NCBI GenBank assembly: GCA_947172415.1
Contig: OX359200.1
Span: 7,386,001 to 7,450,000, forward strand
Reading direction: 5' to 3'
Origin: Chondrosia reniformis
Lineage: Eukaryota > Porifera > Demospongiae > Chondrillida > Chondrillidae
Length of the DNA: 64,000 bases
Part shown: piece after piece, positions 38,001 through 48,612 of the stretch
Position numbering within the stretch: position 1 is the stretch's first letter
Layout of the letters: every line of letters begins with the position of its first letter
Notes under the pieces: generated by a model
Told to the model about the DNA's origin: nothing
What the model saw: the letters and a program-made list of their open reading frames with translations, nothing else
Databases searched by the model: none
Made by a program: the position numbers and the translations under genes

Positions 38001-40317
38001 TCATGCAGTGTCCCTTCCAAAGGCTCCCTGTCCGCTGCTGGACCTGACTGCATTACTGGGGGGCAGTGCCAACGCAGCCTCACTAATAGAGTCCTTGCAA
38101 GCATCTACTGACAGCCATTCCGCCGAGGTGCAGTGGCTGATCAACCACTAGTAGGTCATGTGACCTCTCTCAGTCCCTCCAGTAACTCCTCCCTCTCTTC
38201 TCTCCTGCAGTTTGACATCATTAATCAAGTCTATACGTGAGTTTAGGCCATTTAGTATACGCAGCGAGAACTAAGTGATTAATGTGGTCCCTCCTCTCAG
38301 TAATGGTAGGGTTTTCCCAGCCTGAGGTTATACACCAGTTCTGTGTTTTAATCTGTTCAATATGTCAATATTTGGGATACAACTTCACTAATACAATGGC
38401 AAGTGTCACATGATTGTCATGTGACATTATGCCTTGAATGTGTGTGGTTATGCTGTCTGTAGATCCGCCCCCTCTTCCTGAAGCAGTTTGAGATTCCTGC
38501 CCTAGAGGGCCAGCTTGCAGTAGCCAACAACAGAACTGGACTCACCACAGTGGCCGTTCCAGTGTACATTTGTGGGATACTGGTCTCGTTCAGCGAGTTC
38601 CAAGATAACATTGTGCATTTCATTAAAGATACTCTCGTCACTCTGTCTACATACTACGCTGAGACACACTCTATAAATGCAGCAGTACAAGAACTAAGGT
38701 AGCCACGCCCCTGCTCTCCTCTGCAGCCACACCCCTCCTCACCTGCAGCCACACCCCTCCTCACCTGCAACCACATCCCTCCTCACCTGCAGCCACACCC
38801 CTCCTCACCTGCAGCCACACCCCTCCTCTGTAGCCACACTCTTCACCTGCAACCACACCCCTCCTCACCTGCAGCCACACTCCTCACCTGCAGCCACACC
38901 CCTCCTCACCTGCAACCACATCCCTCCTCACCTGCAGCCACACCCCTCCTCTGTAGCCACACTCTTCACCTGCAACCACACCCCTCCTCACCTGCAGCCA
39001 CACTCCTCACCTGCAGCCACACCCCTCCTCACCTGCAACCACATCCCTCCTCACCTGCAGCCACACCCCTCCTCTGTAGCCACACTCTTCACCTGCAACC
39101 ACACCCCTCCTCACCTCCAGCCACACCCCCCTCTCCTCTGTAGCTCGCACTTCTCCCACCATCACATCTTACTGGAGTTGCTAGAGGAACTGGCTGGCCA
39201 TCCGAAGATGATTGTTAGAGAACACATTCCTCAGCTAGTGGGGGTGTGTAGTGCACCGTCAGACACACCCACTTCTTGTCTCTCCAACTGACCACTTCTC
39301 CTCTCACAGGCTGTTGCAAAGTGTGCAAATGAGAAGTTCACTCACCGCAGAATAATACCCTTTCTCTCCAAACTATCTCGGGACTCGCACATGTGAGGAA
39401 TGTCCTTCTTCCTTCTTGCACTCCACCCACTCCACCCTCCACCTCCCACTCTGCCTCGTAGGGCTGTACAAGAAGGTGTCATTCCTGTTCTAGGAGAGAT
39501 GATGGCAAAGTCAAAGAGTCGTGAGATTGTCTCAAACTGTGGAAAGCTCTTTAGACGGTTTGTGGAGGATGAGTCATTGGCTCACGTGCACACTGTCAAG
39601 ATGGCCGTCCTCAAGACTCTAACTCAAACAGCCACCAAAGTGGATGCACATTTTAGAGAAGAGTGTAAGCATTACCTTCTCACTTGCCAACCTCTCTCTA
39701 CATCCCCTCCCCATCCTCCACTCAATTCTACAGTTCTAATTCCTCATCTGTACAACATGACAGAGCTCAACTCCTCAGACGACAACGTAACTCGGAAAAC
39801 AGACATTACTCGTGCTCTTGTAGCAACTTATAAGGAACTTGTTTATTGCTGTATCCTCTGCATCACTTTGTGTTGTAATACAGTACTGTTTCAGATACCT
39901 TCCTTAAGTTTGCTTAGATATGTCTGCAGAACAGGTGATGCAATACGTGTTGCCGGGATTACAGCATCTGATAGACGATGTGTGTAAACTTGCACCTGAT
40001 CTTGAGGTATGAAGTCTGAACCACGCCCACCCACAATACAACCACGCCCACCCACAGTACAACCACGCCCACACACCTACATATTATGTACCTTTGCTCT
40101 CGGATGCACTTTAGGAGGTAGTGCAGACGATGATCAAAGAACAAGAGGAAAAGGTGAAAAATGTAACTCCAGAAGGCACGCCCACTACCAGGTATGTTCC
40201 CTCCCCTTTACAGACCAGTATGTCAATATTGTCTCACTTTCCAGTACTCCAGTTAAAAAGGAATCAAAATCCTTTATATCACCAGGAAGACTTCGGTTCA
40301 AAAGGAGCAAAAATTAG
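35073..40317 (+). CDS. RELCH: RELCH homologue (KIAA1468; LisH, coiled coil and HEAT repeats)
   Basis: RELCH is a RAB11-binding protein that tethers recycling endosomes to the trans-Golgi network for cholesterol transfer. Conserved pieces appear in order: LisH 'YLTALELHTELLE', 'SNPGNF', 'LDSLELTRYSDDGN', coiled coil 'VAVLEFELRKADETIKSLRA', a second LisH-like stretch ending 'DDWSDVGLNIAKPPGLLQLF' (35,850-36,050), HEAT repeats from about 36,980 to 39,960, and a short basic tail ending 'GRLRFKRSKN'. Many small exons with GT-AG introns. The start is uncertain. ATG 35,073 (MADDEITKRK) needs a 37-nt intron (35,118-35,154) to reach the LisH; ATG 35,116 reads directly into it. One intron is filled by a minisatellite. 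It converges on DUS2. Confidence 0.92.
37800..38008. other. RELCH intron with a GC-rich palindromic patch
   Basis: About 210 bp of intron before the acceptor at about 38,008. The only structure seen is a small hairpin-capable patch near 37,945-37,975, with 'ggccggc' and 'gccggctccggcc', in otherwise AT-rich sequence. Confidence 0.5.
38703..39140. repeat. Minisatellite filling a RELCH intron
   Basis: About 20 units of a roughly 22-bp motif, 'cctgcagccacacccctcct', with variants containing 'ctctgtagccacac' and arranged in longer blocks. It begins at the intron donor ('gtagccacgcccc') and ends at the real acceptor ('cccctctcctctgtag'). Every unit contains a pyrimidine tract followed by cag or tag, so the intron offers many decoy 3' splice sites. 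Confidence 0.9.
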
Positions 40318-40342: not shown

Positions 40343-40467
40343 TTTTCATATTTCACGACTTCTAGAAATTGTTTTGATACATTGATGGCAAACACTAGAC
40401 AAGTTATATGCCATGATAACTTGTAAATGTAGAATTATAAAAGAATTTGTTGGAACTTACATTATAG

Positions 40468-40553
40468 CCACTCAAACTTCCATCATAACATACTGATGAG
40501 TCCTAATAAGGACGAAAACAGCTGTCTATGGCTCTGACCATCTTTTTGAGTGG
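40468..40553 (+). ncRNA. Type I hammerhead ribozyme
   Basis: The full core is present in order. Outer stem I is 'ccactcaaa' (40,468-40,476) paired with 'tttgagtgg' (40,545-40,553), nine perfect pairs. Inner stem I is 'cata' (40,489-40,492) with 'tatg' (40,527-40,530). The core CTGATGA is 40,493-40,499; stem II is 'gtcct' (40,500-40,504) and 'aggac' (40,509-40,513) closing an AATA loop; GAAA is 40,514-40,517; a short palindromic stem III (around 'acagctgt') leads to the GTC cleavage triplet, with predicted cleavage after C40,526. The internal loop in stem I (40,477-40,488 against 40,531-40,544) is where such ribozymes make tertiary contacts. One extra A lies next to stem III, which is too short to be stable alone; in many metazoan type I hammerheads such stems work as dimers. 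Related motifs occur in Penelope-like elements and retrozymes. No second copy was found here. Confidence 0.85.
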
Positions 40554-40732
40554 AAAAGGGAAGACGCTAGTTTCCCTTAAGTGTACTTTGGTACCATCCA
40601 TATACTCGTTGTGCTCCTCAGGAGACATGCATGAAAGGGTTAATCAGGAGTCGGATGAGATGGTGATTTAATAGCTGTTAATTATGCATAATCAAAGCCT
40701 TATTAATTACATAAAAACAATCAAAAGATTAG

Positions 40733-48612
<7,880 letters not shown>

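What the first reader, a model, noticed from the sequence alone, without database searches (positions are those of the whole stretch)
40468..40553. Hammerhead ribozyme in the gap between RELCH and DUS2
All core elements (CTGATGA, stem II, GAAA, GTC) are in place, and stem I closes with a perfect nine-pair outer helix plus a four-pair inner helix around an internal loop. It sits 150 bp past the RELCH stop in the sense direction and opposite the DUS2 3' end. It could cleave extended RELCH transcripts (setting 3' ends, or releasing the tail) or be the remnant of a Penelope-like element or retrozyme. No flanking repeat partner is visible, so it may be domesticated.
Basis: partly seen in the sequence, partly recalled or inferred. 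Interest (0 to 1): 0.85.

Follow-up and report, generated by a model that had tools for sequence, protein, structure and literature searches.

The report
Decayed hammerhead copy of sponge retrozyme
The hammerhead-ribozyme-like stretch is a worn-out copy of a small jumping RNA element that is repeated hundreds of times in this sponge genome, and the evidence does not suggest that it now does a job for the neighbouring gene.

Summary
The hammerhead-like motif at 40468-40553 (+) is real, but it is one old, 5'-truncated copy of a dispersed repeat, not a one-off ribozyme. Contig sizes identify the genome as Chondrosia reniformis (kidney sponge), chr12. It holds 258 cores within 3 mismatches of the family core, 0 in the reversed control. 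Younger copies are ~350-nt units, some in tandem, some with 8-14 bp target-site duplications: the anatomy of an animal non-LTR retrozyme.

The window copy scores 25.9 bits against Rfam Hammerhead_1 (cut-off 34), and 82.8 bits (E 3e-19) against a family model built without it. It has an extra A in the catalytic core (GAAAA), seen in 1 of 105 distinct copies, and a shortened stem I. Its hammerhead helices make up ~0.2% of the predicted ensemble, versus 75-76% in the two other copies folded. Self-cleavage in RELCH transcripts is therefore unlikely.

Beyond the finding: 31 of 70 independent sampled insertions are head-to-head foldbacks, whose outer ends mostly lie at two preferred 3' ends. This suggests twin-primed reverse transcription. 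My searches found no paper on it.

The parts
40465..40629 (+). retrozyme-derived insertion, firmly alignable part (unit positions 1-165); probable decayed continuation to about 40658-40670
   Evidence: u1-165, 83%; matches that start at query position 1 end between 158 and 194, i.e. 40622-40658; the stretch after 40629 taken alone is not significant (178 of 1000 shuffles as good)
40465..40556 (+). degenerate type I hammerhead with outer closing helix
   Evidence: family covariance model R1 82.8 bits, E 3e-19; Rfam RF00163 25.9 bits at 40487-40532, below cut-off 34
40468..40476 (+). outer stem I helix, 5' strand (pairs with 40545-40553)
   Evidence: 100% complementary
40545..40553 (+). outer stem I helix, 3' strand
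40489..40492 (+). inner stem I, 5' strand, 4 bp with 40527-40530 (family: 6 bp)
40493..40499 (+). CTGATGA core, 5' half
40500..40513 (+). stem II and its loop, identical to the majority of the other copies
40514..40526 (+). GAAAA core 3' half with one extra A, palindromic stem III ACAG/CTGT, and predicted cleavage position after 40526
   Evidence: insertion in 1 of 105 distinct copies; a pattern with the extra A fits 5 places genome-wide within 3 mismatches, the window included
   Evidence: ORF 40006-40317; LisH E 0.026, below cut-off

Best explanation
The stretch is an old, solitary, 5'-truncated insertion of a sponge non-LTR retrozyme, a small element without a long open frame whose better copies carry a type I hammerhead. 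Shown: membership in the dispersed family; retrozyme-like unit length, tandem copies and target-site duplications in other copies; a damaged hammerhead here. Inferred from published retrozymes: intact copies are transcribed, self-cleave, circularise and are copied back by the reverse transcriptase of an autonomous element. Inferred: this copy was made when reverse transcription stopped just beyond the hammerhead hairpin (5' end at unit position 1). It has since decayed and cleaves little or not at all, so it does not set RELCH 3' ends.
For:: 42 matches besides itself at 80-86% identity, 39 of them starting at window 40464-40466; one search shows the same left edge; 258 cores within 3 mismatches, 0 in the reversed control; 65 listed Rfam hammerhead matches at E <= 0.001 (73 of 11,921 candidates scored), 51 over cut-off, the window copy not among them. 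Six direct-repeat pairs 350-355 bp apart among the places listed; a 350-bp unit, 46% GC, longest open frame 66 aa. TSDs of 8 bp or more in 25 of 70 independent insertions, null 2.4%; 19 of 70 after dropping low-complexity words (no matching null run). In 55 copies 94.7% of pair cells are standard pairs, 30-40% when slid. Window lesions: extra A, 1 of 105 distinct copies; stem I 4 instead of 6 bp, and hammerhead-helix ensemble share 0.002 against 0.75-0.76 in L036 and L051. Window copy ranks 73rd of 89 family-model matches, many of the others being training rows. Its 5' end lies in a zone shared with other copies: 15 of 180 segment 5' ends fall at u1-10.
Against: No TSD was found for the window copy, so its own insertion event is inferred from homology. 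The hammerhead part has fewer substitutions than the arm: 4/90 against 19/73, Fisher p 9e-5; counting indels 7/92 against 19/73, p 0.002. This could hint at constraint. However, the copy was picked because its hammerhead looked good. Core-selected old copies show the same skew (L092 4.3% against 24.7%, L102 6.5 against 20.0, L081 7.6 against 20.8), while the five arm-selected copies in the table (L120, L123, L124, L126, L127) show similar rates in both parts. Covariation support for the family structure is weak: 8 both-sides cells beat all 500 shuffles, but slid versions reach 7-11. The folding comparison enforced only the outer, stem I and stem II helices, not stem III, the core or tertiary contacts, and used two other copies. 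No RNA or activity data were available.
Confidence: 0.92

Rival explanations
1. A domesticated hammerhead in the RELCH 3' region that cleaves read-through RELCH transcripts.
For: Sense orientation 151 bp past the predicted stop; hammerhead part has fewer substitutions than its arm; outer helix still a perfect 9 bp.
Against: Extra base inside the catalytic core, shortened stem I, predicted misfold that pairs UGAUG of the core away, score under cut-off, hundreds of related copies elsewhere, and a palindromic stem III without a loop; weak helix III is reported to prevent monomer cleavage in many type I cases (PMC7761336, passage).
Confidence: 0.04
2. Remnant of a Penelope-like element, whose terminal repeats can carry minimal hammerheads.
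For: At least one Penelope-like ORF (RVT_1 plus GIY-YIG on a 772-aa frame) exists in the genome.
Against: That element shows no hammerhead by Rfam (E <= 0.1) or by the family model in 4001 bases. The family is a ~350-nt unit whose longest open frame is 66 aa, with a 6-bp inner stem I plus an outer helix. Only one Penelope-like element was examined, of 38 listed GIY-YIG places.
Confidence: 0.03
3. Chance match.
For: The bare motif pattern was reached in 15 of 100 shuffles.
Against: Family model E 3e-19 and DNA identity over about 165 nt to dozens of copies.
Confidence: 0.005

Closest known systems
Metazoan non-LTR retrozymes with type I hammerheads (Cervera and de la Pena 2020, PMC7229834: abstract, part 1 of 3 of Results, Discussion and find passages seen)
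   Same: Short unit without a long open frame (350 nt against ~170-400 nt reported), type I hammerhead, tandem copies, TSDs longer than 4 bp, GC below 50% (46% here)
   Different: Sponge host, not mentioned in that paper ('sponge', 'porifera', 'amphimedon' 0 hits). 31 of 70 sampled insertions are head-to-head foldbacks with two preferred 3' ends; 'inverted', 'head-to-head' and 'opposite orientation' have 0 hits in that paper. The window copy itself is damaged and solitary
Rfam RF00163 Hammerhead_1
   Same: Core and stem layout; 51 of 65 listed places in the genome score over the cut-off
   Different: Window copy 25.9 bits, below 34, with an inserted core base
Penelope-like elements and Terminons with minimal hammerheads
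   Same: Type I hammerhead in a retroelement (PMC7229834 passage); complex inverted and tandem insertions (recalled)
   Different: No long ORF in the unit; the one Penelope-like element examined has no such hammerhead
Plant LTR retrozymes
   Same: Name and proposed life cycle
   Different: Type III hammerheads, LTRs and 4-bp TSDs there (PMC7229834); here type I and TSDs of 8-14 bp

Membership tests
Hammerhead_1 (RF00163), window copy | Score at or above the gathering cut-off of 34 bits | tested here: not met
   25.9 bits
Hammerhead_1 (RF00163), window copy | Uninterrupted core CUGANGA ... GAAA ... H (core rule recalled) | tested here: not met
   One extra A, GAAAACAG
Hammerhead_1 (RF00163), the family in the genome | Score above cut-off | tested here: met
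   51 of 65 listed matches over cut-off
Metazoan non-LTR retrozyme (family) | Short repeat unit with a type I hammerhead, ~170-400 nt | tested here: met
   350-nt unit in L054
Metazoan non-LTR retrozyme (family) | Tandem copies | tested here: met
   Six direct pairs 350-355 bp apart among the listed places; tandem is the minority: 9 of 38 single-orientation insertions exceed 360 nt
Metazoan non-LTR retrozyme (family) | Target-site duplications longer than 4 bp | tested here: met
   8 bp or more in 25 of 70 independent insertions, null 2.4%; 19 of 70 without low-complexity words
Metazoan non-LTR retrozyme (family) | Expressed linear and circular RNAs, self-cleavage | not testable with these tools
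   No RNA data or bench assay
Metazoan non-LTR retrozyme (window copy) | Homology to the unit | tested here: met
   83% over u1-165, family model E 3e-19
Metazoan non-LTR retrozyme (window copy) | Own target-site duplication | tested here: not met
   Longest shared word 4 nt; no 7-mer or longer in a wider search. TSDs occur only 'when present' in the published family, and the 3' end here is blurred
Penelope-like element | Reverse transcriptase plus GIY-YIG ORF with the hammerhead in its terminal repeats | tested here: inconclusive
   Penelope-like ORF in L129 without hammerhead; one of 38 listed GIY-YIG places examined

The most novel reading that the evidence does not exclude
This sponge retrozyme inserts by twin priming. 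Two RNA 3' ends, one at the GATGATGA tail and one just after a T-run, are primed from the two nicked target strands, giving head-to-head foldback insertions bounded by one target-site duplication. Templates are not the hammerhead-cleaved linear RNAs, since no sampled segment end falls at the cleavage site. This would point to circular or uncleaved templates, and to a Penelope- or LINE-type reverse transcriptase as the mobiliser.
Probability: 0.4. Interest if true: 0.55.

Novelty: new member of a known kind. Interest (0 to 1): 0.33.

Why it matters
It replaces a candidate gene-regulating ribozyme with a known kind of mobile element, in a phylum (Porifera) for which my searches of the held open-access library found no retrozyme report: 'retrozyme' with 'Porifera' gave 0 papers, 'hammerhead' with 'ribozyme' and 'Amphimedon' gave one on an unrelated protein, and in three of the five papers that pair 'hammerhead ribozyme', 'Penelope' and 'sponge' every shown use of 'sponge' means a microRNA sponge (12 of 13 places shown in one of them); the other two were not opened. 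The family has many similar copies, intact and broken hammerheads and readable insertion ends, so it is a usable record of how retrozymes integrate, a step for which published work names only candidate machineries (PMC7229834 Discussion).

Tried and rejected
Rejected: a unique or domesticated ribozyme (copies genome-wide, lesion in the core). Chance (family-model E 3e-19). Penelope remnant (one Penelope-like element examined, no hammerhead). DNA transposon with terminal inverted repeats: the foldback look suggested it, but TSDs vary from 8 to 14 bp and the ends lie at two unequal positions. A shared subfamily as the cause of the diverged arm: the arm search found no close relative among its 39 other rows, 74-89% over parts, with 40 of 107 candidates scored. 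Why the arm differs more than the hammerhead stays partly unexplained; ascertainment is my best guess.

Led nowhere: a TSD for the window copy; homology of the 100 bases upstream of 40465 to the unit on either strand (212 and 807 of 1000 shuffles as good); a first paper search with an assembly size (0 papers); a four-term paper search with at least two terms, which listed 25 sponge papers of 3,593, none of the listed holding the hammerhead term. Pfam gave no firm RELCH domain; a sub-threshold Tc-toxin-repeat match on one exon (18.6 bits, cut-off 29) is read as chance.

Bias: loci L059-L118 were chosen from places matching the core pattern and L001-L008 by Rfam score, so good hammerheads are over-represented and segment ends inside the hammerhead under-represented in the main segments. 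carry that bias; the 63 short segments, not chosen for a core, also have no end in u51-70. One search kept one representative of each of 71 flank clusters out of 128 items and dropped one satellite-embedded cluster of 32. Segment ends come from local alignments and can be off by a few bases. Two poor rows seen (L012:2297-2376, L060:566-657), the window row (L009) and 13 others were left out of alignment A1 (55 of 71 rows used).

Full report
Where it is. The window is G000:C12:7386001-7450000 of a 117,379,552-base, 15-contig genome. The lengths of contigs 1-14 agree with chromosomes 1-14 of the kidney sponge Chondrosia reniformis assembly odChoReni1.1 to within 0.01 Mb (PMC12181767, passages seen). 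The window is therefore on its chromosome 12.

The observation. Rfam Hammerhead_1 matches 40487-40532 on the plus strand with 25.9 bits, E 0.00048 for the 601-base stretch searched, below the curated 34 bits. At gathering thresholds nothing is found in the window. The bare motif is not safe on its own: a loose core pattern was reached in 15 of 100 shuffles.

It is a repeat. Searching the genome with 40440-40620 gives 43 matches, 42 besides itself, at 80-86% identity; 39 of the 42 start at window 40464-40466. A longer query gives the same left edge, and the matches that start there end between 40622 and 40658. The Rfam family has 65 listed matches in the genome, 51 over the cut-off, from 73 scored of 11,921 candidates; the window copy is not among them.

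What the family is. One dimer (L054) gives a 350-nt unit, 46% GC, longest open frame 66 aa. Among the places listed, six pairs lie 350-355 bp apart in the same direction. The unit holds a type I hammerhead whose 6-bp inner stem I continues through an internal loop into a 12-bp outer helix. In 55 aligned copies 94.7% of pair cells are standard pairs, against 30-40% when partners are slid. Covariation is weak: eight cells change on both sides against 2.2 in shuffles (0 of 500 reach it), five in stem I, two in stem II, one in the outer helix; but slid versions reach 7-11 such cells, and two other shuffle measures are unremarkable (66 and 70 of 500) and a third is not raised at all (309 of 500). 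Seventy-two of 105 distinct copies have an intact core and stem III; these copies were mostly selected for a good core.

How it inserts. Grouping all family segments in the loci held at that point gives 128 items, 71 flank clusters and, after dropping one satellite-embedded cluster of 32, 70 independent insertions. Twenty-five of 70 have a flanking direct repeat of 8 bp or more (null with mismatched flanks 2.4%), 15 of 70 have 10 bp or more (null 0.3%); without low-complexity words 19 of 70 remain (no matching null run). Segment 3' ends concentrate at u200-210, the GATGATGA tail, and at u245-263, the end of a T-run: 53 of 69 right outer ends and 27 of 31 left outer ends. Thirty-one of 70 insertions are head-to-head (minus segment, then plus), one is tail-to-tail and 38 are single. 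Of the 32 with both orientations, 18 have a TSD of 8 bp or more around the whole composite, 14 without low-complexity words. Those are best read as single events and not nested insertions. No 5' or 3' end among 180 segments falls in u51-70, where the ribozyme would cut (u63). Most loci were chosen for a good core, which biases against such ends; the 63 short segments, not chosen that way, show none either. My reading is target-primed reverse transcription with frequent twin priming, from circular or uncleaved RNA. That is inference.

The window copy. It begins at u1, a zone shared by 15 of 180 segment 5' ends, is a single plus segment and has no detectable TSD. Against the majority of other copies it has an extra A in the core, a 2-base deletion and two substitutions in stem I, an extra T, and two substitutions at the end of the outer helix. 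The GAAAA insertion occurs in 1 of 105 distinct copies. A pattern with the extra A finds 5 places genome-wide including the window; the other four also have the core G changed. With outer, stem I and stem II helices enforced, the window RNA keeps about 0.2% of its predicted ensemble, against 75-76% for L051 and L036; its best fold pairs UGAUG of the core with an upstream CAUCA. This calculation leaves out stem III and tertiary contacts. A model built from 55 other copies gives the window 82.8 bits, E 3e-19, 73rd of 89 matches over 79 held loci, many of which trained the model. So descent is secure and activity is doubtful.

A result against my reading. The hammerhead part carries 4 substitutions in 90 sites (plus 3 indels), the arm 19 in 73 (Fisher p 9e-5, with indels 0.002). 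That might suggest constraint. Core-selected old copies show the same skew (L092, L102, L081), while the five arm-selected copies in the same table show similar rates in both parts. The window copy came to attention because of its hammerhead, so I take the skew mainly as ascertainment and give constraint low weight.

Neighbourhood. The plus-strand ORF ends at 40317. DUS2 on the minus strand is supported: Dus domain and best solved-structure matches named tRNA-dihydrouridine(20) synthase [NAD(P)+]-like. Between them lies a LINE-type reverse transcriptase ORF at 41143-43707, minus (RVT_1, E 4.4e-39; 'LINE' is my reading).

Known work. Animal non-LTR retrozymes are the closest kind (PMC7229834: abstract, part 1 of 3 of Results, passages, Discussion; PMC7761336: passages). 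That Discussion names LINEs or Penelope-like elements as possible mobilisers. A Penelope-like ORF with RVT_1 and GIY-YIG exists here (L129), without a hammerhead within 4001 bases. In the held open library 'retrozyme' with 'Porifera' gives 0 papers, 'hammerhead ribozyme' with 'twin priming' 0, 'hammerhead' with 'ribozyme' and 'Amphimedon' one on an unrelated protein. 'hammerhead ribozyme' with 'Penelope' and 'sponge' gives five; in the three I searched, the uses of 'sponge' shown mean microRNA sponge, and the other two were seen as a listing only. Subscription papers and preprints are not held, so absence in print is not shown.

Verdict. A real hammerhead descendant, wrongly read as possibly domesticated: an ordinary decayed copy of a sponge retrozyme family that is itself a new member of a known kind and has an unusual foldback insertion habit.

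Noticed in passing
L030, L050, L060, L067, L088, L090, L096 and others: Head-to-head foldback insertions of the retrozyme, many bounded by one target-site duplication: 31 of 70 independent insertions, against 1 tail-to-tail.
   Followed up: partly
L002:1479-1568 and L005:1477-1568: A second hammerhead family with a compensated stem II (GCCC/GGGC) and a different arm, over the Rfam cut-off (41.6 and 40.3 bits).
   Followed up: partly
window 41143-43707 (-): LINE-type reverse transcriptase ORF (854 aa, RVT_1 E 4.4e-39) between RELCH and DUS2; three TCAAG repeats at 40840-40854 look like its 3' tail, unlike the retrozyme tail.
   Followed up: partly
L129:735-3053 (G000:C6): Penelope-like ORF with RVT_1 and GIY-YIG, followed by long direct and inverted repeats (seen by eye); candidate mobiliser.
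   Followed up: partly
L051, L047, L076, L077, L079 and others: A number of retrozyme copies sit inside repetitive flanks with ACTAGT-type units (one flank cluster of 32 items).
   Followed up: no
window 40465-40629: Hammerhead part has fewer substitutions (4/90) than the downstream arm (19/73); not fully explained.
   Followed up: partly
window 38700-39290 and 40020-40076: Minisatellite-like repeats inside the RELCH gene region (seen by eye in ORF translations and sequence).
   Followed up: no
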